From Chitinibacter bivalviorum (GTDB lineage Bacteria; Pseudomonadota; Gammaproteobacteria; Burkholderiales; Chitinibacteraceae), in NCBI RefSeq assembly GCF_013403565.1, contig NZ_CP058627.1, positions 310,001 to 374,000 of the forward strand: a DNA stretch of 64,000 nucleotides. Direction: 5' to 3'. The notes beneath the pieces are model-generated. The model was not told the origin of the DNA and did not search any database. It worked only from the letters and a program-made list of their open reading frames with translations. Shown in pieces: positions 12,116 to 48,320 of the stretch; positions within the stretch are counted from its first letter, which is position 1; every line of letters starts with the position of its first letter. The translations under genes and the position numbers were made by a program.

Positions 12116-12164
12116 TGGTATTTCAATGCAGACCTTTCCTAGAGAGGTCTGCATTGAAATACTC
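12116..12164. repeat. 49-bp palindromic element, copy 1 (perfect hairpin between wbpM and rng)
   Basis: Exactly 49 bases, with an 18-base perfect inverted repeat (12118-12135 against 12145-12162) and a 9-base loop. It fills the whole space between two convergent genes; its last base is the first base of the complement of the rng TAG stop. It shares length and end bases (GGTATT ... AATAC) with seven other copies but has a different, fully paired middle. No T-run follows, so it is not a standard intrinsic terminator, though it may still act as one for both genes. Confidence 0.7.
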
Positions 12165-13615
12165 TAGACGAGTACTACATCAAACTGTTCCTGCGTGTAC
12201 GCGCTTTCTACCTGTAGGTAAATGGGTTTGCCAATGAAGTCCACGAGTTGGGCCAAGTTGGCAGACTCTTCATCCAAGAACATATCAATCACCGATTGCG
12301 ATGCCAGGATGCGATATTCGCTGGCATTGAATTGTTTCGCTTCACGTAAAATCTCGCGCAAAATTTCGTAGCAAATTGTTTGCGGTGTTTTCACTTCGCC
12401 GCGACCTTGGCAGGTTGGGCAGGGTTCGCACAGGATGTGAGCGAGTGATTCGCGCGTGCGTTTGCGCGTGATTTCAATCAAGCCTAGGCTGGTGAAACTG
12501 CTGACGGTGATTTTGGTGCGATCGCGTGCCAACGCTTTTTTGAGCTCGGCCATTACCGCTAATTTGTGCTCTTCATTATCCATATCGATAAAATCGACAA
12601 TAATAATGCCGCCTAAATTGCGCAGCCGTAGCTGCCGTGCGATGACTTGGGTGGCTTCCAAATTGGTTTTGAAGATCGTATCGTCAAAAGAGCGCGTGCC
12701 AACAAAACCCCCCGTATTGACGTCGACCGTCGTCATTGCTTCGGTCTGGTCGATAATTAAGTAACCACCGAATTTTAGGTTCACACGCCGACTCATGGCG
12801 CGCTCGATTTCGGCTTCAACGCCATACAATTCAAATAATGGGCGCTCACCAGCGTAGTGCTGAATTTTGGGTAATACATCAGACACGAAACGCGCAGCAA
12901 ATTGGGTCATGCGAGCGAAGTTTTCGCGACTATCGACAAATACGGTTTCGATTTCTTCGGTTACCATGTCGCGTAATACGCGCAATTGCAGCGATAAGTC
13001 TTGAAATAACAGCGATTTGGCGGGCTTGGTTTGGGCGCTTTGTTTGATGTCGGCCCAAATCAGGTTGAGATAATCAATGTCAGCGCGCAACTCATCATCG
13101 CTAGCATGATCGGCATTGGTGCGGATGATGTAGCCGCAATGCTCACCGGGCAGCAGGCTTTCCATGCGTTTTCGTAATTGGTCGCGTTCGGCGTCGTCGC
13201 CAATGCGCTGTGAAATACCAATATGATTGTCTTGCGGCAAGAAAACTAAAAAACGGCCGGCAATGCTGATTTGGGTCGAAAGTCGTGCCCCTTTGGTGCC
13301 GATCGGGTCTTTAATGACTTGCACCATGACCGCTTGGCCTTCATGCAAAATACGTTCGATGCGCTGCGGCTCGTTTGGGTTTTGGCGCTGCTGAATGACA
13401 TCGGCGATATGCAGAAAAGCGGCGCGCTCTAGGCCGATTTCGATAAAGGCGCTCTGCATGCCGGGCAGCACTCGTTTTACCATCCCCAAATAAATATTGC
13501 CGACCAAGCCGCGATGCGCGGTGCGCTCGATATGAATATCTTGCACAACGGCGTCTTCAATGGTGGCAACGCGGGTTTCTTGGGGCGTGATGTTTACGAG
13601 AATCTGCTCTTTCAT
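12164..13615 (-). CDS. rng: Ribonuclease G
   Basis: A 483-residue RNase E/G family endoribonuclease, which trims the 5' end of 16S rRNA and degrades some mRNAs. It lacks the C-terminal scaffold of RNase E, so its length fits RNase G. The start MKEQILVNITPQETRVA is typical; an S1 RNA-binding domain follows (about residues 38-125). VDVNTGGFVG and IVDFIDMDNEEH carry the metal-binding acidic residues, and CPTCQGRGE near residue 405 is the zinc-link. It starts 21 bases after the end of holA on the same strand. Confidence 0.95.
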   Translation of the reverse strand: MKEQILVNITPQETRVATIEDAVVQDIHIERTAHRGLVGNIYLGMVKRVLPGMQSAFIEIGLERAAFLHIADVIQQRQNPNEPQRIERILHEGQAVMVQVIKDPIGTKGARLSTQISIAGRFLVFLPQDNHIGISQRIGDDAERDQLRKRMESLLPGEHCGYIIRTNADHASDDELRADIDYLNLIWADIKQSAQTKPAKSLLFQDLSLQLRVLRDMVTEEIETVFVDSRENFARMTQFAARFVSDVLPKIQHYAGERPLFELYGVEAEIERAMSRRVNLKFGGYLIIDQTEAMTTVDVNTGGFVGTRSFDDTIFKTNLEATQVIARQLRLRNLGGIIIVDFIDMDNEEHKLAVMAELKKALARDRTKITVSSFTSLGLIEITRKRTRESLAHILCEPCPTCQGRGEVKTPQTICYEILREILREAKQFNASEYRILASQSVIDMFLDEESANLAQLVDFIGKPIYLQVESAYTQEQFDVVLV

Positions 13616-13636
13616 ATTCGGTTTTTTCTTTCAGAG

Positions 13637-14656
13637 TCAGCGTCGTGCTGGTTTGGGGTTAATAAGTAGTAGGGCGAGGTCGGTCAGCTCATGCCATACA
13701 TCACCATCGCCGATGCCTTTGATCAGGCCATCAATTTTGCGCGCGTGTTGTAGGGCACTTTTTAGTCTTTTTGCATTGACGCGCTCAGCGGCACGCTCAA
13801 TCAAGCGCTGTTTATTGCCCCAGATGCGCATCTCTTTTATGAGTTGAGCCGCGGGAGTGCCGCGCGAACGGCCTTGGGCAAATTTATAGAGTGTGCGGGT
13901 TTCTTCTGCCAGCGCCCAGAGCACCAATACCGCTGATTCGCCTTCAGCGCGCAGGCCTTCAATCATATGGCAAATACGGGCGGCATCGCCCGTTAATACG
14001 GCTTCGCCAAGGCTGAAAACATCGTATCGCGCGACGTTGGCAACAGCCGCTTCCAGATCTGCGAGGCTGAGTTCGCCTTTGGGGTGGAGCAGAGCGAGTT
14101 TCTGGATTTCTTGATGCGCGGCGAGCAAATTGCCTTCGACGCGTTCAACCAGCCATTCCATCGCATCGCTGGCCAAGCTTTGGCCTTGTGCTGCCAGACG
14201 TTGATTGATCCAGCTGGGCAGGGCACTGCGTTCAATCAGCTTGGCTTCGATCACTTCGCCCACTTTCGCGAGCGCCTGCATCCATTTACTATTCAGCGCC
14301 GTTTTGTCCAGTTTGGGTAAGGTGATAATGGTGAGTATGTCGCTGGGGATATTGTTCGTAAAGGCTTCCAGTGCCTTACCCCCTTCAATGCCGGGTTTGC
14401 CATTGGGGATGCGCAATTCAAGTAGGCGCAACTCGGCAAATAGCGACATCGATGCGCCGCTGGCTGTGAGTTGCGACCACTGAAAGTGCGCCGCATTCTC
14501 GACCGTCAATACTTCGCGTTCGCTAAAGCCCGCTTGGCGCGCGGCATCGCGAATCTGTTGTGCCGCTTCAAGTGCAAGCAGGGCTTCATCGCCATGAATC
14601 ACATACAGCGGGGCTAATCCGCGCTGTAGTGATTTGGGGAGTTCGTCCGGACGCAT
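13637..14656 (-). CDS. holA: DNA polymerase III subunit delta
   Basis: A 339-residue HolA protein. The delta subunit opens the beta sliding clamp within the clamp-loader complex. The N-terminus (MRPDELPKSLQRGLAPLYVIHGDE) and the motif GDEALL fit the family, as does the C-terminal helical collar domain with LIERAAERVNAKRL. The Walker motifs of the related tau subunit are absent, as expected for delta. The ATG overlaps the stop of lptE by one base (TAATG), the standard lptE-holA coupling in proteobacteria. Confidence 0.95.
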   Translation of the reverse strand: MRPDELPKSLQRGLAPLYVIHGDEALLALEAAQQIRDAARQAGFSEREVLTVENAAHFQWSQLTASGASMSLFAELRLLELRIPNGKPGIEGGKALEAFTNNIPSDILTIITLPKLDKTALNSKWMQALAKVGEVIEAKLIERSALPSWINQRLAAQGQSLASDAMEWLVERVEGNLLAAHQEIQKLALLHPKGELSLADLEAAVANVARYDVFSLGEAVLTGDAARICHMIEGLRAEGESAVLVLWALAEETRTLYKFAQGRSRGTPAAQLIKEMRIWGNKQRLIERAAERVNAKRLKSALQHARKIDGLIKGIGDGDVWHELTDLALLLINPKPARR

Positions 14657-15195
14657 TACTGGGCAGCAACGCCTGAAGCTGAAGAAGCGGCAGGAGTATT
14701 CGCTGTCTGATTTTTTTTCGCTGCCGAGTTGATTCGACGGATCATTTGCGAAGCGCCATCACGCTGCATTTCTTTGATCAGGTTGGCCTCTTCGCTTTCT
14801 TTCGATAATACGCTGCTTTCATCCCACGAGAGATTGCGTTGTAGCGTAAGGACATTGTCATCGAGCAAGGTTTCACCCGCTTTGAAGGCGCTAAAGCGGA
14901 TGCGGTAGTAAATGCGGTACTCTGCAACTTGACCATTATTATTTACGCTAAGGACCTGTTTGTCGCTGGTTTCGCTCACGATCTGAATTTTAATTTCAGG
15001 ATTTTGACTCGTGAGATTAACTTTCAGTAGCGTGAGTAATTTGCTGAGTTCTTGACCAGTGCCGCCATTGCCAATGACCTGAGCACTAGCAAATAGTGGT
15101 TTTGCGTTGGGCCCTTGACCGCGTAAATGAAAGCCACACGCCATCAAGCTCAAGCTGAGTATGGCGGCAAGTAGTGTTCTAAAGGTCAAAGGCAT
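14656..15195 (-). CDS. lptE: LPS assembly lipoprotein LptE
   Basis: A 179-residue outer membrane lipoprotein that plugs LptD during insertion of lipopolysaccharide. A signal peptide ends in the lipobox LMAC followed by GFHLRGQG, the conserved start of mature LptE. The C-terminal RDGASQMIRRI region is also typical, then a low-complexity Ala/Ser/Thr tail. The ribosome binding site GGAG lies just before the ATG. The order leuS-lptE-holA matches the conserved proteobacterial arrangement, and the lptCAB genes of the same machine are found further along the window. Confidence 0.93.
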   Translation of the reverse strand: MPLTFRTLLAAILSLSLMACGFHLRGQGPNAKPLFASAQVIGNGGTGQELSKLLTLLKVNLTSQNPEIKIQIVSETSDKQVLSVNNNGQVAEYRIYYRIRFSAFKAGETLLDDNVLTLQRNLSWDESSVLSKESEEANLIKEMQRDGASQMIRRINSAAKKNQTANTPAASSASGVAAQ

Positions 15196-15222
15196 ACTTT
15201 CTCCAACATATTATTTGTCAGT

Positions 15223-15263
15223 GTCATTCAGCAGGCATGAGCTTGCCCAAGCTGCTGAATGAC
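15223..15263. other. Stem-loop between leuS and lptE
   Basis: An 11-base inverted repeat (GTCATTCAGCA at 15223-15233 against TGCTGAATGAC at 15253-15263) lies just downstream of the leuS stop on the minus strand. No T-run follows, so it may be an mRNA-processing or attenuating hairpin within the leuS-lptE-holA transcript and not a full terminator. Confidence 0.5.
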
Positions 15264-15271
15264 GCTAGGTC

Positions 15272-17950
<2,679 letters not shown>

Positions 17951-18001
17951 CTAAAGCACTGCGGCGGCGGCATAAAGAAAACAACGTTCATACCGATATG
18001 C

Positions 18002-18030
18002 TTGTTAATGAAATATTTGCCCTCTATGCT
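18002..18030 (+). promoter_or_regulatory. Possible sigma-70 promoter for the first pilin-like gene
   Basis: TTGTTA at 18002-18007 and TATGCT at 18025-18030 are separated by 17 bases, about 50 bases before the pilin start at 18082. The match is moderate and untested. Confidence 0.4.
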
Positions 18031-18081
18031 TACAAGCAATGGCTAATATTCGCAATGCCAGTTCGCAATTGAGAGGTCGAG

Positions 18082-18690
18082 ATGAAAAATAAACAACAAG
18101 GTTTTACGCTGGTTGAGCTGGCGATTGTATTAGTCATTATTGGCCTGATTTTGGGGATGGCCTTTAAGGGTAAGGACCTGATCGATGGCGCCAAAGTCAA
18201 AAATATGCAGGCGCAGTACAATAAAATTGTCGCTGCTTTTAATATCTACTACGAGAAATACGGCAACTACCCTGGTGATGGTTGTACTGTTGCAACCACT
18301 CCAGCAGAAGGCGGCGCGGCAACGTGTAGTGCACCAGGAACGCGCAATGGATTGTTAAATACTGCAGATGAAGTAGCTGCTTCTATGCGCTTATTGCAAA
18401 ACGCTAATATTCTTACCAATGCTGATATCCAAAGCGTATTTGGGCAACCGTGGGTGATGTCAAATTCCGCTGACACCGTGGCGAATTTCGCCGCAAATAC
18501 GAATTACATAACTTTAACCAGCACTAATACGGCCGCTGCCGATATTCGATTTGTCTGCGCTTTGGATCGATTGATGGATGATGGTGCGCCGGATAAAGGT
18601 ATTGTTCGAAGTGGTGGGGTTTATTCGGCCACTGCGGATTGTTGGTCATTGTCTGGGCAGGTCTCAATGGGTATTCGTGTGTTGCCTTAA
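18082..18690 (+). CDS. Type IV pilin-like protein 1 of 3
   Basis: A 202-residue protein with a short basic leader and the prepilin peptidase site G|FTLVELAIVLVIIGL, where cleavage after Gly gives N-methylated Phe and the first 25 residues form the pilin assembly helix. The rest is a globular periplasmic domain with YEKYGNYPGDGC near residue 56 and a C-terminal CALDRLMDDG ... DCWSLSGQ signature, four Cys in all or more. These two C-terminal motifs recur in the next two genes. It is not a standard PilA or a named minor pilin that I recognise. The ribosome binding site is GAGAGG and the gene has its own terminator downstream. Confidence 0.85.
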   Translation: MKNKQQGFTLVELAIVLVIIGLILGMAFKGKDLIDGAKVKNMQAQYNKIVAAFNIYYEKYGNYPGDGCTVATTPAEGGAATCSAPGTRNGLLNTADEVAASMRLLQNANILTNADIQSVFGQPWVMSNSADTVANFAANTNYITLTSTNTAAADIRFVCALDRLMDDGAPDKGIVRSGGVYSATADCWSLSGQVSMGIRVLP

Positions 18691-18708
18691 TAATTCATGG
18701 TTGCAGTG

Positions 18709-18738
18709 AAAATACCCCTTGCTCAAGGGGTATTTTTT
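18709..18738 (+). terminator. Intrinsic terminator after pilin-like gene 1
   Basis: An inverted repeat (AAAATACCCCTT, loop GCTC, AAGGGGTATTTTTTT) ends in seven T. It should stop or attenuate transcription between pilin 1 and pilin 2, so the second and third genes may be expressed less or by read-through. Confidence 0.85.
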
Positions 18739-18750
18739 TAGGGGGTAGGT

Positions 18751-19347
18751 ATGAAGCAAAAAGGCTTTACGCTAGTTGAGTTGGCGATTGTGTTGGTGAT
18801 TATTGGTCTGATTTTGGGCATGGCGTTTAAGGGGAAAGACCTGATCGACGGCGCCAAGGTCAAAAACATGCAGGCGCAGTACAATAAAATTGTCGCTGGC
18901 ATCAATATCTTTTATGAGAAATATGGGTTCTACCCTGGTGACGGCTGTCCAAGCGCAACGCCAGCGTCAGTTGCTGCTTGCAATGGTACCCGCAATGGGT
19001 TGATTGATAATGGCAATGAAGCTGCCGCCTTCTGGGTATTGCTGATTGATGTCACCAATATCCTGCAAAGTACCGATCGACGTAGTGTGCTGGGGCAGGA
19101 TTGGACGGTTTGGAATCGCTCAAATGCTTTGTGGCTGGATTTTCAGGGCGCGGCCAATGCCGATATGCGCTTTATTTGCGCTTTAGATCGTTTGATGGAT
19201 GATGGCAGTTCGAATACGGGTATTGTGCGTGATGGTGACCCAGCAACGACGCCTCCGTATGCCTCAACGAGCAATACCTATACCACCGCCAGTGATTGTT
19301 GGAGTTTGTCGGGTCAGGCGAATGTATTGATGAAAGTGATGCCATAA
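18751..19347 (+). CDS. Type IV pilin-like protein 2 of 3
   Basis: A 198-residue paralogue of the preceding gene. After the leader MKQKG the first 55 or so residues are almost identical to pilin 1 (FTLVELAIVLVIIGLILG and the stretch LIDGAKVKNMQAQYNKIV), while the middle differs. The motifs YEKYGFYPGDGC, RFICALDRLMDDG and DCWSLSGQ are kept. It has its own ribosome binding site (AGGGGG) just after the terminator. High N-terminal identity at the DNA level suggests recent duplication or gene conversion between the copies. Confidence 0.85.
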   Translation: MKQKGFTLVELAIVLVIIGLILGMAFKGKDLIDGAKVKNMQAQYNKIVAGINIFYEKYGFYPGDGCPSATPASVAACNGTRNGLIDNGNEAAAFWVLLIDVTNILQSTDRRSVLGQDWTVWNRSNALWLDFQGAANADMRFICALDRLMDDGSSNTGIVRDGDPATTPPYASTSNTYTTASDCWSLSGQANVLMKVMP

Positions 19348-19361
19348 GGGTGAGTTGCAAA

Positions 19362-19991
19362 ATGAAATTAAAGCAGTCAGGTTTTACTTTGGTCGAGCTG
19401 GCGATTGTGCTGGTGATTATTGGTCTAATTTTGGGAATGGCGTTTAAGGGGAAAGATCTGATCGACGGTGCCAAAGTGAAAAACCTTCAGGTGCAATACA
19501 ATAAAATCATTTCTGGGATCAATATTTTCTATGAGAAATATGGCTTTTTCCCCGGGGATGGTTGTGTGAACGCTTCGCCTGCATCGGTGGCGGAATGCAT
19601 GCCTGGTGGTGCAGGTTATAGCGCGGCGAATCGCAATGGGCGCTTAACGGGTAATGAGCAGGCCGCTTTTTGGGTGTTGTTGATTGATCGCACTAATATT
19701 TTGCAATCAGCAGATCGCCGCAGTGTCTTTGGTCAGGATTGGGGCTTGTGGGATGGCACTTTATCGGCGGGCGGTGCGGTCGCCAAAGCGGGAACTTGGC
19801 TGGATTTGCCCGGGGTGCCGCAGTCAGATCCGCGTCTGGTGTGTGCGCTCGATCGAGCGATGGATGACGGGGTGTGGAATACCGGTAGTATGAGAACGAA
19901 TGGTGATCCCGCGGCTATCAATTACATTGCCACCACTGACTGCTGGTCTTTATCAGGGCAAAGTAATTTTCATATGGTGGTATTGCCCTGA
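19362..19991 (+). CDS. Type IV pilin-like protein 3 of 3
   Basis: A 209-residue paralogue with the same prepilin helix (SG|FTLVELAIVLVIIGL) and the motifs YEKYGFFPGDGC, LVCALDRAMDDG and DCWSLSGQ. It is closer to copy 2 in the middle part (NILQS.DRRSV.GQDW). I placed the start at ATG 19362; the frame is open further upstream, but the extra residues would run before the prepilin leader and overlap gene 2. The last four codons (VLP and stop) lie inside a copy of the 49-bp element. All three proteins end in V-L/M-P. Confidence 0.85.
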   Translation: MKLKQSGFTLVELAIVLVIIGLILGMAFKGKDLIDGAKVKNLQVQYNKIISGINIFYEKYGFFPGDGCVNASPASVAECMPGGAGYSAANRNGRLTGNEQAAFWVLLIDRTNILQSADRRSVFGQDWGLWDGTLSAGGAVAKAGTWLDLPGVPQSDPRLVCALDRAMDDGVWNTGSMRTNGDPAAINYIATTDCWSLSGQSNFHMVVLP

Positions 19992-20026
19992 AATCTAGAT
20001 GCTGAATGGGGTTTGACTTAATACCT
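19978..20026. repeat. 49-bp palindromic element, copy 2 (over the pilin 3 stop codon)
   Basis: Begins TGGTATTGCCCTGAA and ends GGGGTTTGACTTAATACCT, 49 bases in all, matching the family arms. It overlaps the last 14 bases of pilin gene 3 and lies between that gene and convergent hda. Confidence 0.65.
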
Positions 20027-20695: not shown

Positions 20696-20777
20696 TTAGG
20701 TGCGTTGCGAGCAAGAAATCACGTTGTGTGCCTTATCGGGCGAGTAAGAGGGCGGGTCTTGGCATTAAAGGCTTGCT

Positions 20778-21963: not shown

Positions 21964-21999
21964 AAAAAGGCGAGGTCAATGACCTCGCTTTTTGTTTTT
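21964..21999 (+). terminator. Intrinsic terminator after purM
   Basis: AAAAAGGCGAGGTCA and TGACCTCGCTTTTTG form a strong GC stem followed by a T-rich tract. Confidence 0.85.
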
Positions 22000-22022: not shown

Positions 22023-22071
22023 AGGTATTGCTCTGAATATATTTTGGTATATGGGCTTGACGCATATACCC
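22023..22071. repeat. 49-bp palindromic element, copy 3 (upstream of purN)
   Basis: AGGTATTGCTCTGAA at the left, GGGCTTGACGCATATACCC at the right, 49 bases. It lies after the purM terminator and ends 14 bases before the purN start codon, so it would be in or next to the purN leader and could affect its expression. Confidence 0.8.
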
Positions 22072-22085
22072 TCATGGATTGATGC

Positions 22086-26758: not shown

Positions 26759-26807
26759 GGGTATTGGCCTGAAGTGATTGTGCTTGAAGGTATTTAGGCA
26801 TATACCC
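26759..26807. repeat. 49-bp palindromic element, copy 4 (between petC and sspA)
   Basis: GGGTATTGGCCTGAA at the left, GGTATTTAGGCATATACCC at the right. It sits directly downstream of the petABC terminator and upstream of sspA. Confidence 0.8.
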
Positions 26808-27627: not shown

Positions 27628-28986
27628 TTAAACCAGATTTGCAAAGAGGTATGCGCCGCCAATTGCAATGGCAACATAAACCAGGAACATCATTTGCTGT
27701 TTGCTCGTTGAGAACGTCACACGCTCAGGTACTGGCGTGCAAGGCTTCTCGTTCTTGGTATAGAAAGGCATACCCAAGAAGAAAGCAAAATAGATAAATG
27801 ACAGAATCTGAGCAATCACGGTGCGAACATTGGTCGATGGCATTGCGCCCAAGATACCCAGGCCGATGAATGCAATCAGGAACAGCACCAACATCACTTT
27901 GAAGCTCGTTGGACGATAACGGATCGATTTGATCGGTGAACGATCAAGCCATGGCAGGAAGGCGATCAGTACCACTGCACCGCCCATACCCAATACGCCC
28001 CAAACTTGGGTGCCAAGGAACGATGGAATCGCACGCAAAATCGCGTAGAACGGTGTGAAGTACCAAACTGGAGCAATGTGCGGTGGTGTTTTCAGCGCAT
28101 CAGCTGGGTCGAAGTTTGGATGCTCCAAGAAGAAGCCGCCCATTTCTGGTTTGAAGAACAAGATCGCGCAGAACACAGCCAAGAACACCGCTACGCCGAA
28201 AATGTCTTTAACGGTGTAGTAGGGGTGGAATGGAATCCCATCACGTGGGATGTGTGTCACTGGATCTTTGTTTTTCTTGATTTCAACGCCATCTGGGTTG
28301 TTAGAACCCACTTCGTGCAATGCAACCAAGTGAGCAACAACCAGCGCCAGCAATACCAAAGGTACAGCAATCACGTGCAGCGCAAAGAAGCGGTTCAGCG
28401 TTGCATCAGAGACCACGAAGTCACCACGAATCAGCACTGACAGGTCAGGACCAATCACTGGAATTGATGCAAACAAGTTCACAATAACCTGAGCGCCCCA
28501 GAATGACATTTGGCCCCAAGGCAGCAAGTAGCCCAAGAAAGCTTCAGCCATCAAGATCAGGAAGATCAAGGTACCAAATACCCAAACCAGTTCACGTGGT
28601 TGTTTGTATGAGCCGTAGATCAAGCCACGGAACATATGCAGATACACCACAACGAAGAACATCGATGCACCTGTTGAGTGCATGTAGCGGATGATCCAGC
28701 CACCTGCCACATCACGCATGATGTATTCAACCGATGCAAAGGCCACCGAAATATTGGTACCAGGGATCAAGTTGCCATCTGGCTTGTAGTTCATGGTCAG
28801 GAAAATGCCGGTGACGATCTGGATAACCAGAACCAGCATGGCCAATGAGCCGAAGAAGTACCAGAAGTTAAAGTTTTTTGGTGCGTAGTATTCGGAAACG
28901 TGTGCTTTCCAGGTGCTGGTGAGCGGGAAACGCTCATCCACCCAGCCAAGTACCTTTTCCGGTAAACCTTGTTGTTGATTGCTCAT
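27628..28986 (-). CDS. petB: Cytochrome b of the bc1 complex
   Basis: A 452-residue protein with eight membrane helices and the two b haems between helices B and D (His in RYMHSTGAS and HVIAVPLVLL regions). The quinol-oxidation loop reads APVWYF, so the usual PEWY is PVWY, which I know from other betaproteobacteria. It oxidises ubiquinol and drives the Q cycle. Its ATG lies 11 bases after the petA stop. Confidence 0.97.
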   Translation of the reverse strand: MSNQQQGLPEKVLGWVDERFPLTSTWKAHVSEYYAPKNFNFWYFFGSLAMLVLVIQIVTGIFLTMNYKPDGNLIPGTNISVAFASVEYIMRDVAGGWIIRYMHSTGASMFFVVVYLHMFRGLIYGSYKQPRELVWVFGTLIFLILMAEAFLGYLLPWGQMSFWGAQVIVNLFASIPVIGPDLSVLIRGDFVVSDATLNRFFALHVIAVPLVLLALVVAHLVALHEVGSNNPDGVEIKKNKDPVTHIPRDGIPFHPYYTVKDIFGVAVFLAVFCAILFFKPEMGGFFLEHPNFDPADALKTPPHIAPVWYFTPFYAILRAIPSFLGTQVWGVLGMGGAVVLIAFLPWLDRSPIKSIRYRPTSFKVMLVLFLIAFIGLGILGAMPSTNVRTVIAQILSFIYFAFFLGMPFYTKNEKPCTPVPERVTFSTSKQQMMFLVYVAIAIGGAYLFANLV

Positions 28987-32072: not shown

Positions 32073-32121
32073 GGGTATTTGCTTTAATATGTTGCTGGAT
32101 TTTTACTTGGGGTCTATACGG
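32073..32121. repeat. 49-bp palindromic element, copy 5 (degenerate, after the DegS-like gene)
   Basis: GGGTATTTGCTTTAA at the left, and ATACGG in place of ATACCC at the right, at the same 49-base spacing. It lies between convergent genes and is flanked by TG on both sides. It is the least conserved accepted copy. Confidence 0.5.
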
Positions 32122-35410: not shown

Positions 35411-35459
35411 GGGTATGTCCCCCAAATCATTTTAGGCATTGGATTTGAATGATATACCC
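35411..35459. repeat. 49-bp palindromic element, copy 6 (between kdsD and kdsC)
   Basis: GGGTATGTCCCCCAAATC at the left pairs well with GGATTTGAATGATATACCC at the right. It begins two bases after the kdsD stop and ends 17 bases before kdsC, inside a probable operon. Confidence 0.78.
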
Positions 35460-39587: not shown

Positions 39588-39637
39588 CCGGGGAAGGCAA
39601 GTACAATACCCCGACCATAAGGACCGCGATTGAGACC

Positions 39638-40111: not shown

Positions 40112-40190
40112 TTTGCTTGGGCTGGACGGAAAAATGCTGGCTCGTTACTATTGAAGCCTGCCTATCAGGCAGCCTGTTCATGAGAGCCTT

Positions 40191-41135
40191 ATGCCACAAA
40201 TCACTGCCCGCCAATTATTCATCGATAATGCCGAAAAACTGCGCCTCACTTGGGTGGCAGGGCAGTCTGGGGCGAATAATCTGTTATCCAACGACGCTAG
40301 CGAACAAAAACCTTCGCTATCGCTGGTTGGTCACTTAAATTTCGTTCACCCCAACCGTATTCAAGTCCTTGGTATTGCCGAGGTCGCTTACCTCAATGAT
40401 TTATCGCCCGATGTACAGCTAAGCAGCCTTAATCAACTGTTTGCCAGCGAAATGGCCGCGATGATTGTGGCTAATGGCCAGATCGTACCCGCTGCTCTGC
40501 ATGATGCTGCCGAGCGTCACCATGTACCCTTACTGACGAGCCCAGAGCAATCCCCATATTTAATGGAGGTATTGCGCTACTATCTAAGCAAGGCTTTGGC
40601 TGTATCAACACACCTACATGGGGTATTTTTAGATGTGCTGGAAGTCGGCGTACTGCTCACGGGTGAGTCGTCGATGGGTAAATCAGAGTTGGCACTGGAG
40701 TTGATTTCGCGCGGCCATGGCTTGGTTGCTGATGATGTGGTGGAAGTTTATCGCACCAACCCTGAAACTTTGGAAGGGCGTTGCCCGCCGATGCTGCGCG
40801 ATTTTCTGGAAGTGCGCGGGATTGGTGTATTGAATATTCGAACCATTTTCGGCGAAACCGCGGTTCGCCCCAAAAAAACGCTGAAATTGATTATCCATCT
40901 GGCCAAAGCAGGTGGGGAGTCGATGGCGCCAGTCGATCGATTGCAAATGCAGGCGGCAACCCAAGCCATTTTGGATGTGCCGATTCGTAAGCTTGTCATC
41001 CCCGTTGCCGCAGGTCGCAATCTGGCGGTTTTGGTTGAATCTGCCGTGCGAAACTATATTTTGCAGCTGCGTGGGATTGATTCAACGCGTGAGTTTATCG
41101 AGCGACACCAGAAATTTATGGAGATGGGTGAATAA
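40191..41135 (+). CDS. hprK: HPr kinase/phosphorylase
   Basis: A 314-residue bifunctional enzyme that phosphorylates HPr/NPr on serine or removes the phosphate. The P-loop GESSMGKS is at residues 158-165, followed by [10 protein letters not shown] and the HprK signature region around [15 protein letters not shown]. The N-terminal HprK domain is complete. Its stop overlaps the rapZ start by one base. Confidence 0.95.
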
Positions 41136-42368: not shown

Positions 42369-42912
42369 TTCGCCCTCACAACATGCGCTGCGAGTGCAGC
42401 CTAGCGATGCGTATATTGCGCGTCTTGCCGCGTATGCCATCGTTTTGGCCGTGCTGGAATCAGGTATTCCATCGCCAATTCCGGGCGTCAAGCCGGGTTT
42501 GGCCAATATTGTGACTTTGATCGCCTTAGAGCGCATGGGCTGGCGAGCGGCTGCTTGGGTGAGTTTGCTGCGGATTTTTGGTTCCAGCATTGTCTTGGGG
42601 GGGATTTTCTCGCCTGGCTTTGCGCTGAGTTTATCGGGTGGTATCGCCAGTTTGCTGGTGCTGGCATTGTGCCAATATCTGCCGCGCCGACATTTCGGTT
42701 GGGTGACGATTTCCCTGCTGTCAGCCTTGGGGCATACGGCGGGGCAATTGCTATTGGCACGACTTTGGCTTATCCCGCACAATGGGATTGTCTATTTAAT
42801 CCCGCTGCTGGCTGGCATGGCCTTGGTGTTTGGCTTTGTTAATGGCGTGATTACCGAACGATTATTACGCGCTTATCCTGAGCGGCATAAAGTGTCTGCG
42901 GAGCAATTATGA
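42349..42912 (+). CDS. Gx transporter family membrane protein (heptaprenyl diphosphate synthase component I-like)
   Basis: A 187-residue integral membrane protein with about five helices, containing ESGIPSPIPGVKPGLANIVTLIAL near residue 38, the signature of the Gx/HepS-I-like family. Despite the old name it looks like an ECF-type substrate-binding membrane protein. It overlaps the NusG-II gene by 20 bases and ubiX by 4 (ATGA). Substrate unknown; the ubiX neighbour makes a flavin- or prenyl-linked role conceivable (inference). Confidence 0.82.
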   Translation: MTASVTNSPSQHALRVQPSDAYIARLAAYAIVLAVLESGIPSPIPGVKPGLANIVTLIALERMGWRAAAWVSLLRIFGSSIVLGGIFSPGFALSLSGGIASLLVLALCQYLPRRHFGWVTISLLSALGHTAGQLLLARLWLIPHNGIVYLIPLLAGMALVFGFVNGVITERLLRAYPERHKVSAEQL

Positions 42913-43514
42913 GTAAAACCATCACACTGGCCTTTACCGGCGCATCAGGCTTGCCGTACGGGATACGCACTTTGGAGTGCTTACTGGCCGCAGGTTGCAA
43001 GGTGCGCTTGGTGTACACGCAAGTGGCGCAAATTGTGGCTAAGCAAGAGTTAGATCTAAATTGGCCATCGCGCGCCGCCGATTTGGCCGAAAAACTCCGC
43101 GAGCAATATCAGTTGGCTGATCCTGAGCAGCTGCAAGTCTATGGCCAGCAAGAATGGTTTGCGCCGATGGCTTCGGGCAGCAATCCGGGCGATGGCATGA
43201 TTGTGGTGCCTTGTACCATGGGCGCACTCTCTGCGATTGCCAATGGCGCGTCGGATAATCTGCTGGAGCGTGCTGCGGATGTGATGATTAAGGAGCGAAA
43301 AACACTGATTATCGTGCCACGCGAAACGCCATTCTCCGCGATTCATTTGGAAAATATGCTCAAGCTGGCGCGGCTAGGGGTGGTGATTTTGCCGCCTAAT
43401 CCGGGTTTTTATCATCACCCAACGCAGGTGAGTGATTTGGTCGATTTTGTTGTGGCAAGAATTTTGGATCAGCTTGATGTGCCGCATGAGCTGATGAAAC
43501 GCTGGGGTGAGTAG
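42909..43514 (+). CDS. ubiX: Flavin prenyltransferase UbiX
   Basis: A 201-residue flavoprotein that attaches a dimethylallyl unit to FMN, giving the cofactor of UbiD decarboxylase in ubiquinone synthesis. AFTGASGLPYGIRTLECL at the N-terminus, VVPCTMGALSAIANG near residue 99 and VPRETPFSAIHLENM near residue 137 are diagnostic. Its TAG stop supplies the first G of the next 49-bp element. Confidence 0.95.
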   Translation: MSKTITLAFTGASGLPYGIRTLECLLAAGCKVRLVYTQVAQIVAKQELDLNWPSRAADLAEKLREQYQLADPEQLQVYGQQEWFAPMASGSNPGDGMIVVPCTMGALSAIANGASDNLLERAADVMIKERKTLIIVPRETPFSAIHLENMLKLARLGVVILPPNPGFYHHPTQVSDLVDFVVARILDQLDVPHELMKRWGE

Positions 43515-43562
43515 GGTATTGGTCTGAATGTATTTATTTTATTTGGCTTAGAAGTAATACCC
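43514..43562. repeat. 49-bp palindromic element, copy 7 (between ubiX and the MATE gene)
   Basis: GGGTATTGGTCTGAA at the left, TGGCTTAGAAGTAATACCC at the right, TA on both outer sides. It exactly fills the space between two convergent genes: its first base is the last base of the ubiX TAG and its last base belongs to the MATE stop codon. Confidence 0.82.
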
Positions 43563-44911
43563 TAGTGAGTATTTAAATGCTTGAGGCTGACGCGCCTAAA
43601 TAGCCACAATAAAGACAGCGCAGCGAACGTGAGCGCGATGACCAGCGCGATCCAAAATCCCTGCGCGCCATGCGCCGCAATTGGCCCAATGCCAAACGCT
43701 AGTGCATAACCCAGCGGCAAGCCGATCACCCAGAATGCCGTCATATGCAGCAACATTGGCAGCCGTGTGGCTTGATAACCGCGCAAAATCCCGCTGGCCA
43801 CGACCTGCGTGGCATCTGAAAACTGGAATATCCCCGCCAGTACTAGCAATTGCGTCGCTAGCGCCAATACCGCGATGTCTTGGGTATACAAGCGTGCAAT
43901 CTGCGCGCCAAAAATCATCGTAATCGCCGCACCGATTCCCGCAACGATCAGCCCCAAACGGACGCCATTTTGACCAATCAAGCGGGCTTGTTGCCAATTT
44001 CCAGCGCCTGCCGCATGGCCGACGCGCACTGTGAGCGCAGTGCTAATGGCCATCGGAATCATAAATAGCAAAGAGGCAAAATTAAGCGCAACCTGATGAG
44101 CCGCCACGGCAGTCGTGCCCAAGCGGGCAATCAACAGGGCGATCAGGCTAAAGGCGCTCACTTCAATAAAGAACATAATGCCTATGGGTATACCAAGCTT
44201 TGCCAATTGCCATTGGGCATTCCAGTTGATACCCCTTAATTTATCGAAGGGGTGCGTCCCGCGATAAATGGGGGCGTAGCAAATCCAAACGAACCACATC
44301 AATGCGCTCACCCACATGCAAAAAGCCGTGGCCCAACCGCAACCAACTGCCCCCAAGGCGGGAAAGCCCAAATGGCCGTAAATCAAAATCCAGTTCGCGG
44401 GAATATTGAGCGCTAATGCGATCAGGGAAATGATCATCATCGGCTTGGTTTGATTGAGCGCCGAGCTATAGCCATATAGGACGCGCGACACAGCGAGCGC
44501 AGGCAAACCCCAGCTAACGGCGGATAAAAAACGTCCTGCTTTATCCGCCACTTCACTGGCTAGGCCAAGATGGTTAAACACCGGCAATACCGCATGCGCA
44601 ATCAGGATCGCGACCGTACCGGCCAACAAAGCCTGATAAAGCGCCTGCTGAGTCAACATGGGCAACGCGTCACGCTGATTGGCGCCGACCTTGGCCGAGG
44701 CCAGTGGGCTAATCGCGAGCAGTAAACCCATTAAGGTGACAATCAGTGTGGTCCAGATCGAGGCGCCAACCGATACCGCCGCTAAATCCGCCGCCGAAAC
44801 ATGGCCAGCCATCACCGCATCGACAAAAGCTGTGCCAGTTTGGGCGAGCTGACCCACCATAATGGGCCAAGCCAGCACTAAGGTGGCTTTGGCGTCTTTA
44901 AGTAAGGGCAT
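43562..44911 (-). CDS. MATE family efflux transporter (NorM-like)
   Basis: A 449-residue protein with twelve predicted membrane helices in two MatE repeats; the N-terminus (LVLAWPIMVGQLAQTGTAFVDAVMAGHVSAADLAAVSVG) is typical of NorM-type drug/Na+ or H+ antiporters. It may export cationic drugs. Six bases upstream lies the end of a small unknown gene on the same strand. Confidence 0.9.
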   Translation of the reverse strand: MPLLKDAKATLVLAWPIMVGQLAQTGTAFVDAVMAGHVSAADLAAVSVGASIWTTLIVTLMGLLLAISPLASAKVGANQRDALPMLTQQALYQALLAGTVAILIAHAVLPVFNHLGLASEVADKAGRFLSAVSWGLPALAVSRVLYGYSSALNQTKPMMIISLIALALNIPANWILIYGHLGFPALGAVGCGWATAFCMWVSALMWFVWICYAPIYRGTHPFDKLRGINWNAQWQLAKLGIPIGIMFFIEVSAFSLIALLIARLGTTAVAAHQVALNFASLLFMIPMAISTALTVRVGHAAGAGNWQQARLIGQNGVRLGLIVAGIGAAITMIFGAQIARLYTQDIAVLALATQLLVLAGIFQFSDATQVVASGILRGYQATRLPMLLHMTAFWVIGLPLGYALAFGIGPIAAHGAQGFWIALVIALTFAALSLLWLFRRVSLKHLNTH

Positions 44912-44917
44912 AAAGTC

Positions 44918-45226
44918 CTATTGATCAGATGAATAATGCCCAACGGCAGGTTCAAAATGCGCTAATAAATCAGCAAAGCGTCTTTGAAACAGCAAGGCTT
45001 CTTCCAAGCTCAAATCAAAAATCACCAAGCTGCCATCGGGCATGTTTTGGCTGGGGAGTGAAAAAACACTGGCCGCAGCAAAAGCCAATTGCAAACGATG
45101 CGGCGCAATCTGTGGTGCGCAGCGTAGCAGTAAACGATTACGGTTGCGCCAATGCAGGCTGAGATGAAAGCGGGTTTGTGGGCGAGTAGGGCTGGTCACG
45201 GTAGGTAATTCTAGGCAATCGTACAT
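44918..45226 (-). CDS. Hypothetical protein, 102 residues
   Basis: A small soluble protein starting MYDCLELP with a good ribosome binding site (TGGAG eight bases before ATG 45226). The sequence has a beta-like central part (RFHLSLHWRNRNRLLLRC) and an acidic helical end (LEEALLFQRRFADLLAHF). I recognise no family. It is six bases upstream of the MATE gene and probably co-transcribed with it. Confidence 0.65.
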   Translation of the reverse strand: MYDCLELPTVTSPTRPQTRFHLSLHWRNRNRLLLRCAPQIAPHRLQLAFAAASVFSLPSQNMPDGSLVIFDLSLEEALLFQRRFADLLAHFEPAVGHYSSDQ

Positions 45227-45513
45227 GGGCAAACTCCAAATGGATTTGCCGGTAAAGCCAACTGGGCCTTACCGACGCTTTAGCGGTATTTCGACTGCGC
45301 CCCGCAAGTTGTCGATTAATAGGCGCATAGTGCTTATTTACTTTGAATTGTTTAATTGACCCAAAAACAAAAAAGCCACGGCGAGCGTGGCTGATGTTTC
45401 GGCACGCTTTAGCAGATTATTTAAAGCGCCCTGCAAGCTGTTTCAACTCAGCGCTTGGAAATGATTCTGCGCCGCAAAATCGGCGCGGTCAAGATACAGA
45501 ATTACCCGTACAT
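45227..45513. other. Gene-free gap with terminator and a possible gene remnant
   Basis: About 290 bases between two minus-strand genes. It includes a small hairpin near 45249-45275, a clear minus-strand terminator at 45366-45392 and, upstream of that, a short open frame that looks like the last codons of a chemotaxis receptor gene (see findings). The promoter of the 102-residue gene should lie at the left end. Confidence 0.5.
45366..45392 (-). terminator. Intrinsic terminator on the minus strand
   Basis: On the minus strand AGCCACG, loop CTCGC, CGTGGCTTTTTTG. It lies about 120 bases beyond the dtd stop and may originally have served a gene now lost. Confidence 0.83.
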
Positions 45514-45966
45514 TTACTCCGGATTTTTCGAGTCAAGCCAAATGGTGACGGGGCCATCATTGGTGAGTGTCACTTTCATATCGGCACCAAATTGCCCGGT
45601 CGGCACCGCTTGGCCGATTTTTTGGCTCAGCGCCGCGACAAAAGCATTAAACATGGGCTCGCTCACCGCGCCTGGCGCTGCAGCGCTCCAGCTTGGGCGA
45701 TTGCCTTTTTTATTGCTGGCATACAGCGTGAATTGACTCACAGCCAAGGCTTGACCTTGCGTATCGAGCAAAGAGAGATTCATCACATCGTTGGCGTCAG
45801 AAAAAATCCGCAGATTGGCTATTTTATTGACCAGCCATTGAATATCAGCCTCGCTGTCTTCATGCGTGACGCCGACCAGTAGCAGCAAGCCCGCGCCAAT
45901 TTGACCGACGATTTGCTCGGCCACCACGACGTTCGCGTGGCTAACCCTTTGTACTAATACCCGCAT
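45514..45966 (-). CDS. dtd: D-aminoacyl-tRNA deacylase
   Basis: A 150-residue enzyme hydrolysing D-aminoacyl-tRNAs. The active-site motifs SQFTLYA near residue 77 and [11 protein letters not shown] near residue 136 (NxGPVT) are complete and [13 protein letters not shown] is the normal start. Its ATG overlaps the stop of the upstream small gene by one base, so it is translationally coupled with it. Confidence 0.95.
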
Positions 45967-46337
45967 TACCGTACCGCAAGTGAGGAAAGTTGACCGGGTT
46001 CGCTGGCAACTAAAGTGCGCTGAAATGAGCCTGTTTGATCCAACGATTGCATCCCCAGTGCCAGACGTTCGCGCAAAGTGGCAGCTTCACGCGGCACGAG
46101 CTGTTGCAGGCGAGCCAAGTCACGCATCAAGTGGCGCATAAAAACGGGGAGTCCATCGCTGTTTTCTAAGTGAACGTCCAGCAGCCTTGCCATGCCAGAC
46201 ATCAGCGCCATTTCGACCCGCAAAGACACGTCATCGCGTTGGCGCATCACGTTTTCAATTTCGGCTTTTTTGGCCGCGTCGAGCAGAATGGGGTTAGTGA
46301 ATTTGCGCATGGTCATCGTTTTGGAGTTATTTGGCAT
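45966..46337 (-). CDS. Hypothetical protein, small paralogue A
   Basis: A roughly 123-residue soluble, mainly helical protein without membrane segments. The core [26 protein letters not shown] and [23 protein letters not shown] is also present, with changes, in the next gene on the same strand (46547-46933), and both end in LS-LAVR. I recognise no family. Starts at 46337, 46316 or 46310 are possible; I used the longest ATG. It is coupled to dtd. Confidence 0.72.
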
Positions 46338-46546
46338 TGCCAGCAAAATAAAGGTCAGGCTTTGTTAGCTGGTGTGAAGATTATATGAAACTTAATACCT
46401 GTCAGTCATAATATTTTAACTGCTAACCGATTAATGGCATTGTCATTGGTAATGGTCGGGTAAGCTATACGGCATTTCGCTAATAAAAAATGGCCAGAAT
46501 GATATCTGGCCTAGTCGCTATCGAACTTGCTGTGCCCTATGTCTTG

Positions 46547-46933
46547 CTAGCGCACGGCAAGGTTAGAGAGATGTGGTTTGGGCGAGTCGTTGAGCTTGCC
46601 TTGGAAGGGCTCTTGGACTGTCGTGGTTTGCATCCGATCAACGATCAGTCGTTCACGCAACATAAGCGCTTCACGCGGCGCTGTGCGGTACAGTTGTTTG
46701 AGGTCGCGAATAATCTGATTGATCATCGGATGGCGCTTAGCGTGATTTAACTCGTGGTTACGCAGTTGCAACGCTAGGCCGTTCATTCTTACCATTTCAA
46801 TGCGCAGTGATAGCTCGTCGCGGCAGCAAAAGAGTGCGTCGAGCTGCTTTTTTCTTGTGATTTCGAGCTGCTCAACTTGGATGTGTAACGGAAAGGACGG
46901 TTTTTTCTCGCTGGAAGGTCGTGCCAGATTCAT
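46547..46933 (-). CDS. Hypothetical protein, small paralogue B
   Basis: A 128-residue helical protein with basic N-terminus, paralogous to the preceding gene: CRDELSLRIEMVRMNGLALQLRNHEL, IRDLKQLYRTAPREALMLRERLIV and the C-terminal LSNLAVR line up. No known domain is recognised. Charged helices with the PREA..LRERL motif could mediate protein or nucleic-acid contacts, but this is a guess. The gene starts about 177 bases from divergent asd. A gap of 209 bases separates it from paralogue A. Confidence 0.72.
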   Translation of the reverse strand: MNLARPSSEKKPSFPLHIQVEQLEITRKKQLDALFCCRDELSLRIEMVRMNGLALQLRNHELNHAKRHPMINQIIRDLKQLYRTAPREALMLRERLIVDRMQTTTVQEPFQGKLNDSPKPHLSNLAVR

Positions 46934-47110
46934 GATTTTTAAAGACTTATTTCGCGCTTGATATGATCGCCGCTCATCGATTACTCGAAAAAATGACGAT
47001 GTATTATTTTGGGCGCGAATTGTTACCTACAAGTCTCTAGCCAGCAATGCGGATTTTCTCTAATATCAAGGGCTTGCTGTTCGTATTTTGTAATCGATAA
47101 GGAAAACATA

Positions 47111-48217
47111 ATGAAGCGGGTAGGTTTAGTCGGTTGGCGCGGTATGGTGGGCTCGGTCCTGATGCAACGTATGCAGGAAGAGAAAGATTTTGACGTGATT
47201 GATCCCGTCTTCTTCACCACATCGCAAGCAGGTCAAGCAGCACCTAATTTCGGTAAAGATGCTGGCACCTTGAAAGACGCTAACGATATTGCTGAATTGA
47301 GCAAGATGGATGTCATCATCTCTTGCCAAGGCGGCGACTACACGACCGCGATTTTCCCAAAACTACGCGCTAGCGGCTGGGAAGGCTACTGGATTGATGC
47401 AGCGTCGACGCTGCGCATGGAAGACGACGCTGTCATTATCCTCGACCCAGTGAATGACGATGTGATCCAAGGCGCTTTGGCTAAAGGCGTGAAAAACTAC
47501 ATCGGCGGCAACTGTACCAACTCGATCATGTTGATGGGTATGGGCGGCTTGTTCAAAGCCGGTTTAGTTGACTGGGTATCGTCAATGACTTACCAAGCAG
47601 CATCCGGCGGCGGTGCGAATCACATGCGCGAATTGCTCAAAGGTATGGGCGTGGTTTACAACTCGGTGGCCGATGAGTTGGCAACGCCATCGTCGGCGAT
47701 TCTGGAAATCGACAAAAAAGTTGCCCACACGATTTCTAACGACGTACCGACTGAATTCTTCGGCGCGCCATTGGCGGGCGGCTTGATCCCTTGGATCGAC
47801 AAACAACTCGACAACGGCCAATCGAAAGAAGAGTGGAAAGGCCAAGCCGAAGTGAACAAGATCCTTGGTACGGACGCAACGATTCCTGTTGATGGCTTGT
47901 GCGTGCGCATCGGCGCAATGCGTTGCCACAGCTTGGCTTTGACGATCAAACTGAAACGCGATCTGCCATTGGCTGAAATCGAAGCCATCATCAAATCGGG
48001 CAATGATTGGGTGAAATGGGTGCCAAATGATCGCGAAATCAGCGTGAAAGAATTGATCCCAGCGCAAATCACCGGCAAGCTCGACATCGGCGTAGGCCGT
48101 GTTCGCAAATTGAATATGGGCCCAGAGTACATCAGCGCATTCGTGATCGGCGACCAATTGCTGTGGGGCGCTGCTGAACCACTGCGTCGTATGCTGCGGA
48201 TCTTGTTGGCAAAATAA
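47111..48217 (+). CDS. asd: Aspartate-semialdehyde dehydrogenase
   Basis: A 368-residue NADPH enzyme converting aspartyl phosphate to the semialdehyde for lysine, threonine, methionine and cell-wall [18 protein letters not shown] is the cofactor loop; the catalytic Cys135 is in GGNCTNS, the position and motif of the gammaproteobacterial type. I start at ATG 47111 with AAGGA 8-9 bases upstream; the longer frame is not conserved. Confidence 0.97.
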
Positions 48218-48237
48218 TCAATCATCATTGATTGAAT

Positions 48238-48268
48238 AAAAAAAGGGATGCTGCTGCATCCCTTTTTT
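48238..48268 (+). terminator. Intrinsic terminator after asd
   Basis: AAAAAGGGATGC, loop TGCT, GCATCCCTTTTTT. A runs on the left suggest it also works for the convergent ETF-QO gene. Confidence 0.88.
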
Positions 48269-48271
48269 ATT

Positions 48272-48320
48272 GGGTATTGCTCTGAAATCAAATTGCGAAA
48301 AGGATTTCAGAGTAATACCT
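48272..48320. repeat. 49-bp palindromic element, copy 8 (between asd and the ETF-QO gene)
   Basis: GGGTATTGCTCTGAAATC at the left pairs with GATTTCAGAGTAATACC at the right with one mismatch, making a 17-base stem. It starts three bases after the asd terminator and ends 17 bases before the ETF-QO stop. Confidence 0.85.

What the first reader, a model, noticed from the sequence alone, without database searches (positions are those of the whole stretch)
12116..48320. A family of dispersed 49-bp palindromic elements at gene ends
Eight copies (12116, 19978, 22023, 26759, 32073, 35411, 43514, 48272) are all exactly 49 bases long, with no insertions or deletions. The left arm consensus is GGGTATTGNYCTGAA, the right arm GGNTTNGANNNAATACCC; the arms are complementary and the middle 15 bases vary. 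All copies are at or after stop codons: five in convergent gaps, three between co-directional genes. Three follow a normal terminator directly, and the others begin within two or three bases of a stop codon, or overlap it. Fixed length with variable core suggests a defined functional or mobile unit (a tiny MITE-like element, a recombinase site, or a 3' RNA hairpin). It is not a Correia element, and I know of no matching named family.
Basis: seen in the sequence. Interest (0 to 1): 0.82.

Follow-up and report, generated by a model that had tools for sequence, protein, structure and literature searches.

The report
Chromosome-wide 49-base mirrored DNA tag
A group of chitin-degrading bacteria carries many hundreds of copies of one rigid 49-base mirror-image DNA site, spread evenly through the chromosome and even written into genes, which looks like an address label read by an unknown protein, perhaps one at work during chromosome copying or DNA uptake.

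Summary
In 1.26 Mb of this genome (genus Chitinibacter) a symmetric profile finds 304 sites against 3 in reversed sequence, about 865 per chromosome. Length is rigid: 204 facing half-site pairs at 49 bases, 5 at 50. 'At gene ends' is partly right: 117 of 304 lie inside genes. Orthologous sites in polA and valS arose by substitution, not insertion, which argues against MITE, REP or recombinase units. The family fills three genera: 15 of 81 relatives; no other genome among 369 of the class has more than 2 exact matches. Sites keep their places between genera and repel each other below 1.5 kb. In intergenic copies, read on the leading-strand side, G-T mispairs outnumber A-C three to one (417:140), against 1.3 beside them and in genes: a strand-specific fold tied to replication. 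Best guess: binding site of an unknown symmetric chromosome-maintenance protein (0.40). Close rival: an uptake signal for transformation (0.36). No binding protein was found; uptake was not testable here.

The parts
12116..12164 (.). 49-bp element, convergent gap; near-perfect inner palindrome
   Evidence: score 27.0; folds to a long hairpin, z -8.6
14333..14381 (.). weak element inside a gene
   Evidence: score 17.6
15772..15820 (.). weak element inside a gene
   Evidence: score 16.7
   Evidence: score 23.3
19978..20026 (.). element in a convergent gap, overlapping a stop codon
   Evidence: score 28.6
22023..22071 (.). element between co-directional genes, after a terminator
   Evidence: score 38.5; terminator 21965-21993
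26759..26807 (.). element between co-directional (minus) genes, after a terminator
   Evidence: score 37.6; terminator 26842-26818
27727..27775 (.). element inside a gene
   Evidence: score 19.7
32073..32121 (.). diverged element, convergent gap
   Evidence: score 17.0
35411..35459 (.). element between co-directional genes
   Evidence: score 42.5
40567..40615 (.). weak element inside a gene
   Evidence: score 15.7
43514..43562 (.). element in a convergent gap
   Evidence: score 36.8; an element in the same gap in 5 of 5 other genomes of the genus (scores 11.4 to 35.9)
44186..44234 (.). element inside a gene
   Evidence: score 20.0; same place in 5 of 5 other genomes of the genus (13.6 to 23.7)
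48272..48320 (.). element in a convergent gap, after a terminator
   Evidence: score 41.9; element at the end of the same gene in 4 of 5 other genomes of the genus (12.6 to 39.7)
51024..51072 (.). weak element inside a gene
   Evidence: score 12.1; stronger element at the same place in 5 of 5 other genomes of the genus (21.3 to 27.6)

Best explanation
SHOWN: a lineage-specific, genome-wide DNA tag, a rigid 49-bp dyad (GGGTAT at each outer end, weaker positions at about 12, 15, 18, 20-22 and their mirrors, AT-rich centre), gained by point substitution, kept in place over a split between genera, and spaced out. Its intergenic copies also carry a strand-specific folding signature on the leading-strand sense, which is the sequence of the lagging-strand template. 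INFERRED: a protein complex with two-fold symmetry reads the duplex on one face of about four helical turns. MOST LIKELY FUNCTION (inferred): a chromosome-maintenance site about every 4 kb, where such a protein sits and acts in connection with replication forks (anchoring, reloading or restart after the fork passes); intergenic copies, free of coding limits, show the extra ability of the exposed single strand to refold.
For: 304 sites against 3 in control. The whole dyad is the unit: half-sites of score 12 or more occur 449 times in elements, 85 times alone, 47 in control; 204 facing pairs at 49 bp, 5 at 50. Conserved positions about one or two helical turns apart. Few in divergent gaps (13 in 36 kb) against convergent (63 in 24 kb). 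Spacing: 4 neighbour distances under 500 bp against 25 expected, 26 against 57 under 1 kb, 0 of 500 gap-aware placements as low. Places kept between Chitinibacter and Deefgea: 6 of 9 intragenic sites, chance 0.03. Replication strand: weak asymmetry of the inner 37 bases agrees with GC-skew sign in 80-88% of the elements that could be oriented, against 56% (95th percentile 65%) in neighbouring DNA; leading-strand G-C and T-A skew 0.205 and 0.147 in convergent elements against 0.066 and 0.067 in convergent gaps without them; G-T to A-C pairs in leading sense 141:45 convergent, 158:41 and 75:41 co-directional (transcribed with or against the fork), 27:5 divergent, 1.31 beside the elements; A-C fewer than columns predict, z -3.1. 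Same direction in smaller samples of Deefgea (76:29) and g10 (64:27).
Against: No candidate protein. About 29 bits of information (raised by the score threshold) against about 12 bits needed for 865 sites is more than a binding site needs and fits spread by biased copying. Sites inside genes show no strand signature (GT:AC 1.27 and 1.32) though they are conserved. The strand signature could in part be a local mutation bias or, in co-directional gaps, RNA: copies transcribed against the fork have a lower ratio (1.83, whose interval reaches down to the neutral 1.31) than those transcribed with it (3.85). Leading strand is inferred from GC skew of each stretch; a few stretches are near zero.
Confidence: 0.4

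Rival explanations
1. Uptake signal of natural transformation: a self-DNA tag that makes fragments carrying it preferred for uptake, so that it accumulates by biased uptake and recombination.
For: Excess information; even spacing, which PMC7811141 calls an expected consequence of uptake-driven accumulation (passages); found in genes (117 of 304), as are 65% of Haemophilus influenzae and 35% of Neisseria gonorrhoeae uptake sequences (PMC1939737 passages); amino-acid cost accepted in valS; no site in the first 20 kb of each of contigs C2 and C3, 9.7 expected; Chitinibacter is in the same order, Neisseriales, as the Neisseriaceae; overlapping dyad pairs of DUS in Simonsiella, for which the authors suggest dimer recognition (PMC3630211 passages); ComEC in 43 of 43 family genomes.
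Against: Replication-strand signature; [quoted passage not shown] Whole dyad needed, not a single short core. No receptor: of 17 prepilins read from the own genome (22 N_methyl matches) none is well matched in both bearing genomes compared and missing in all three non-bearing ones; a FimT-like pilin is only 30-33% alike at full length in other genomes of the genus and 53-57% in two non-bearing genomes. ComEC does not discriminate. Density lower than in Haemophilus (spacing about 1 kb).
Confidence: 0.36
2. Dispersed mobile element (MITE, REP with RAYT transposase, or recombinase attachment site) spread by insertion.
For: Hundreds of copies, arms, gene-end preference; fold on the lagging-template side recalls single-strand transposons (recalled).
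Against: The polA Klenow site and the valS site show no insertion (30 and 21 genomes); inner sequence not shared between copies; Y1 transposase family absent from 5 of 15 bearing genomes; large serine recombinase in 3 of 15.
Confidence: 0.04
3. RNA element: terminator or 3' stabilising hairpin.
For: Peak just after stop codons; arms complementary beyond column composition in convergent gaps, z 4.5; stronger wobble signature in copies transcribed with the fork than against it.
Against: Sites in genes lack it, z -1.2; convergent and divergent copies and those transcribed against the fork keep the replication sense; ordinary terminators stand before three of the eight copies; 4 of 8 window copies fold no better than shuffles (19978, 22023, 32073, 35411; z from -0.66 to 0.64).
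Confidence: 0.08
4. Another sequence-level process, for instance a HIP1-like iterated palindrome kept by a methylase, repair or mutation process.
For: A clade-typical iterated palindrome exists in cyanobacteria (PMC4390886, listing and start of abstract only).
Against: HIP1 is a compact 8-mer; here two separated half-sites at a rigid distance are required.
Confidence: 0.12

Closest known systems
DNA uptake sequences: DUS (Neisseriaceae) and USS (Pasteurellaceae)
   Same: Hundreds of copies, clade-limited, in genes and between them, even spacing, stem-loops at gene ends
   Different: Rigid 49-bp dyad with both halves needed; core unlike the 12-mer DUS; replication-strand signature; uptake not shown; receptor unknown
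Dyad-arranged simDUS/kingDUS pairs of Simonsiella muelleri (PMC3630211 passages)
   Same: Abundant dyad-symmetric uptake-sequence pairs
   Different: Overlapping short sequences, not half-sites with centres about 43 bp apart
matS, parS, Noc and SlmA sites (recalled)
   Same: Palindromic chromosomal protein sites
   Different: Recalled as tens of copies of 12-16 bp; here about 865 sites over the whole chromosome
HIP1 of cyanobacteria
   Same: Iterated palindrome typical of a clade
   Different: Compact 8-mer linked to methylases
REP/BIME elements with RAYT transposases; attC and IS200/IS605 single-strand folds (recalled)
   Same: Palindromes at gene ends, single-strand folding
   Different: No insertion signature at the sites followed, no consistent Y1 transposase, rigid length

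Membership tests
DUS/USS uptake sequences | strong genome-wide over-representation in a clade | tested here: met
   304 against 3; 15 of 81 relatives, three genera
DUS/USS uptake sequences | found in genes and intergenic DNA, relatively even spacing | tested here: met
DUS/USS uptake sequences | inverted pairs or stem-loops at gene ends | tested here: inconclusive
   every element is a dyad; extra complementarity at convergent ends z 4.5
[quoted passage not shown]
   intergenic copies have a replication-strand asymmetry
DUS/USS uptake sequences | short single core (DUS with CTG core, or USS core with AT tracts) | tested here: not met
   core is GGGTAT..ATACCC at 49 bp; half-sites alone hardly enriched
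DUS/USS uptake sequences | promotes DNA uptake | not testable with these tools
   needs an uptake assay
DUS/USS uptake sequences | cognate minor-pilin receptor | tested here: inconclusive
   none of 17 prepilins specific to bearing genomes among 6 genomes compared; FimT-like pilin not supported
REP/RAYT elements | Y1 transposase of the RAYT kind in the genome | tested here: not met
   PF01797 absent in 5 of 15 bearing genomes
MITE | insertion relative to orthologous DNA | tested here: not met
   ungapped at one polA site and one valS site
Correia elements | Correia repeat sequence | not tested
   no Correia sequence was compared
Rho-independent terminators | GC-rich hairpin followed directly by a T run | tested here: not met
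   of the 8 copies the scans listed only a 5-pair stem inside 35411; separate terminators precede three copies
Known structured RNA families (Rfam) | match above gathering score | tested here: not met
   0 matches in the window
Serine-recombinase attachment sites | cognate recombinase in bearing genomes | tested here: not met
   PF07508 in 3 of 15 bearing genomes
Chromosome-organising or replication-linked protein sites | dyad read as one rigid unit, link to replication strand | tested here: met
Chromosome-organising or replication-linked protein sites | known cognate DNA-binding protein | not tested
   no proteome-wide presence/absence search was possible

The most novel reading that the evidence does not exclude
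A new kind of bacterial chromosome tag: about 865 rigid 49-bp dyads per chromosome, read as duplex by an unknown symmetric complex and able, outside genes, to fold as a single strand on the lagging-strand template, so that the system acts on both states of the site as forks pass. It is strong enough to change amino acids in an essential gene and to keep its places over genus-level divergence. I know of no intracellular bacterial site that is at once so informative, evenly spaced, dense and clade-limited.
Probability: 0.37. Interest if true: 0.93.

Novelty: new variant of a known kind. Interest (0 to 1): 0.84.

Why it matters
If it is a chromosome-protein site, it would be a dense, highly specific, genome-wide bacterial binding site with a replication-strand sense, for which I can name no precedent. 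If it is an uptake signal, it is a separate, dyad-symmetric design of self-DNA recognition outside the two families where such signals are known (PMC3630211 passage). Either way the birth of sites by base substitution can be read from orthologous genes such as valS, where 5 of 6 genomes of the genus have the site, so the force behind it can be measured.

Tried and rejected
Mobile element: opposed by ungapped orthologues at one polA site (30 of 43 family genomes read) and one valS site (21 of 43) and by patchy Y1 transposases. RNA hairpin as the main function: opposed by sites in genes without arm covariation. Serine recombinase site: not supported; tyrosine recombinases were not searched. FimT-like minor pilin as receptor: tested over 43 genomes, not supported. 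Prepilins: 17 of the own genome compared with two bearing and three non-bearing genomes; a first comparison with a pattern that missed some pilins of G029 made one PilV-like pilin look specific, a direct comparison removed that (61% alike in non-bearing G029). Viral carriage: 72 contigs with one place each, taken as chance without a formal expectation. Another spaced dyad in element-free genera: none stood out in samples of 140, 140 and 120 kb. The strand pattern first seen (13 forward, 5 reverse matches of the left-arm consensus) was set aside, then tested and found to reflect replication-strand asymmetry. Papers: four searches brought up no description of this element; the library is open-access only. 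PMC2954483 was not held and is known only through PMC7811141.

The strand results, found while checking, reverse that narrowly (0.36 and 0.40). An earlier count said g11 has 8 genomes; one search shows 7.
Full report
OBSERVATION. The window lies at C1:310001-374000 of a 3.68 Mb genome in four contigs. The pattern GGGTAT-N37-ATACCC with up to two mismatches has 911 places in the genome against 85 for the reversed pattern. I took 60 stretches of the main contig which, with the window, make 1,256,069 bp. In these, GGTAT..ATACC pairs occur 170 times at exactly one total length (47, that is 49 with the outer bases), 9 times one base longer, 4 times one base shorter, and 1.4 times on average at other lengths. 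A symmetric profile made from 169 strict matches finds 304 places at score 10 or more against 3 in the reversed sequence, which scales to about 865 on the main contig. 169 of 170 strict matches score 10 or more, so at least 134 of the 304 were not in the training set. Each of the 61 pieces has at least one site of score 12 or more; the 14 stretches at 1.0-1.8 Mb have 44, about 3.1 per 20 kb, against about 4.6 overall. By GC skew the terminus is near 1.0 Mb and the origin near 2.85 Mb.

ANATOMY. G3, T4, A5, T6 and their mirrors are nearly invariant. Inside, positions 12 (T), 15 (A), 18 (C), 20-22 (W, T, T) and their mirrors are weakly to moderately conserved, and the centre is AT-rich. Peaks at 4, 15, 35 and 46 are about one or two helical turns apart. 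Half-sites of score 12 or more occur 449 times within elements and 85 times alone, against 47 in control; facing pairs number 204 at 49 bp and 5 at 50 bp. So the two-sided unit is what is kept. Information is about 29 bits (289 sites, raised by the threshold) against about 12 bits needed for that many places (my arithmetic).

GENE CONTEXT. With a home-made gene caller (coding fraction 0.825, so some classes will be wrong), 117 of 304 sites lie inside genes, 63 in convergent gaps, 106 in co-directional gaps, 13 in divergent gaps and 5 beside an unknown neighbour. Per kb of gap: convergent 63 in 23.8 kb, co-directional 106 in 92 kb, divergent 13 in 36 kb.

NOT INSERTED. PolA was sought in the family: 43 of 43 genomes have it and 30 loci were read. 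In the Klenow-coding part a site with no gap stands in all 15 bearing genomes read (scores 5.3 to 23.0; 13 of 15 at 10 or more), while the same codons in 15 non-bearing genomes score -25 to -64. A second site in the polA linker is shared by 6 of 6 genomes of the genus; 7 of 7 Deefgea have a site in that linker at another alignment position. The linker varies in length, so it says nothing about insertion. In valS the site is in 5 of 6 genomes of the genus (24.1-26.0) and absent from the sixth, from 7 Deefgea, 2 g10 and 6 non-bearing genomes; the frame is ungapped, and Glu-Ala or Glu-Pro elsewhere reads Asp-Thr in the site. Sites are thus born by substitution, at a cost in amino acids; valS also shows that they turn over.

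DISTRIBUTION. Of 81 genomes (relatives up to order), 15 have 313-621 matches with at most one mismatch (all 6 g1, 7 g11, 2 g10) and 66 have 0-16, with controls of 0-14; the largest unexplained excess among the 66 is G057, 16 against 0. Of 369 genomes of the class G000 has 243 exact matches and no other more than 2; that draw held no other member of the family. Names: the polA site 49-mers of Chitinibacter sp. GC72, C. tainanensis and Deefgea rivuli are identical to those of G001 (g1), G003 (g1) and G024 (g11), so g1 is Chitinibacter and g11 Deefgea; four Deefgea loci carry elements, Formivibrio citricus and 73 further loci (1.48 Mb) have none of score 10 or more. g10 is unnamed, G+C about 0.61. 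A PolA tree joins g1 and g11 with support 99 and places g10 and g7 near them; one clade of g1+g10+g11 is not rejected (p-AU 0.43), so one gain with a loss in g7, or a gain after g7 left, both remain open. Samples of g11 and g10 give 205 and 185 sites per Mb with the same length; g7, g8 and g3 samples give 0, 0 and 1.

MAINTENANCE AND SPACING. In five other genomes of the genus the gap of 43514 has an element in 5 of 5, the intragenic 44186 and 51024 in 5 of 5 each, and the gene end of 48272 in 4 of 5. Between Chitinibacter and Deefgea 6 of 9 intragenic sites and 5 of 13 gene-end cases are kept (chance 0.03 and 0.07); with g10, 1 of 2 and 3 of 6; with the non-bearing g7, 0 of 4 (a gap with two scored genes counts twice). 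Neighbours keep apart: no distance under 244 bp, 4 under 500 bp against 25 in placements that keep the gap classes, 26 against 57 under 1 kb, 53 against 85 under 1.5 kb, 0 of 500 placements as low; large distances and count variance do not differ significantly from the null. The first 20 kb of contigs C2 and C3 have no site (9.7 expected); the first 10 kb of C4 have two, the same 49-mers as at C1:1430065 + 3.7-4.1 kb.

FOLD AND STRAND. Arms pair beyond what their columns explain in convergent gaps (z 4.5), weakly in co-directional and divergent gaps (z 2.3, 2.0) and not inside genes (z -1.2). Without orientation G-T pairs are not in excess. Oriented on the leading strand (sign of GC skew of each stretch), all 187 intergenic copies have 417 G-T against 140 A-C pairs; A-C is below the column expectation (168, z -3.1) and Watson-Crick above it (1127 against 998, z 6.3). 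By class: convergent 141:45, co-directional transcribed with the fork 158:41, against it 75:41, divergent 27:5; inside genes 125:95 and 109:86; 49-mers beside the elements 1469:1122, ratio 1.31. 9 of 25 mirror pairs are asymmetric at p below 0.001 in convergent and co-directional copies, 1 of 25 in genes. Samples of Deefgea and g10 agree (76:29, 64:27). A stem on the leading-strand sense, that is on the lagging-strand template, would tolerate G-T and not A-C. Transcription adds to it (3.85 with, 1.83 against the fork) but does not reverse it. A local mutation bias cannot be excluded; the bias of surrounding DNA is too small to explain it.

MECHANISM. Shown: a DNA-level, two-sided, length-rigid tag under selection or drive, with a replication-strand fold outside genes. 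Inferred: a complex with two-fold symmetry reads it. Two uses compete. Chromosome maintenance linked to replication: symmetry, rigid spacing, scarcity in divergent gaps, strand signature. Uptake signal: excess information, even spacing, amino-acid cost, absence from two small contigs, same order as the Neisseriaceae, ComEC in 43 of 43 genomes, and the likeness to what passages of PMC7811141, PMC1939737 and PMC3630211 say of USS and DUS. History is a caution: Karlin read the even spacing of uptake sequences as a sign of a replication, repair or compaction role (cited in PMC1939737), and the same paper argues from absent orientation bias against it; here such a bias is present. The missing piece is the protein. 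Prepilins and a FimT-like pilin (FimT and ComN as DNA receptors: PMC8897410 passages, and PMC12616744 abstract) gave no bearing-specific receptor.

WHAT REMAINS OPEN. The reader of the tag, occupancy in vivo, competence of these bacteria, the identity of g10, whether g7 lost the system, and why sites in genes lack the fold yet persist.

Noticed in passing
window 18082-19991: Three tandem prepilin-like genes (N-terminal methylation motif) with elements at two of their ends (18669, 19978).
   Followed up: partly
window 1-5400: Reading frames with low codon-usage score by my gene caller and no element of score 10 or more before 12116; may be acquired DNA.
   Followed up: no
window 12116-12164: This copy is far more palindromic than the others (14 of 14 inner pairs tested) and may double as a hairpin.
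   Followed up: partly
L457 (G000:C4) 297 and 704; L072 3715 and 4123: The same two 49-mers stand in contig C4 and in the main contig, so C4 begins with a copy of a chromosomal piece (duplication or assembly matter).
   Followed up: no
L097, L056, L083, L081, L105: Sites sit in or beside genes that I recognise by eye from the protein start as polA, recC, recB, a photolyase, uvrA and valS; a bias to genome maintenance genes was not tested.
   Followed up: no
L252 14437 (G035, non-bearing): An orthologous codon stretch in a genome without the tag scores 6.8 and looks like a site before its last substitutions, so some sites may have grown from favourable coding sequence.
   Followed up: no
G003, G005, G036, G015, G014 against G000, G040, G023, G021, G029: Two alternative FimT-like minor-pilin groups seem to alternate within the family independently of its tree.
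   Followed up: partly
G057 (same order): 16 matches of the pattern against 0 in control, the largest excess outside the three bearing genera; not looked at.
   Followed up: no
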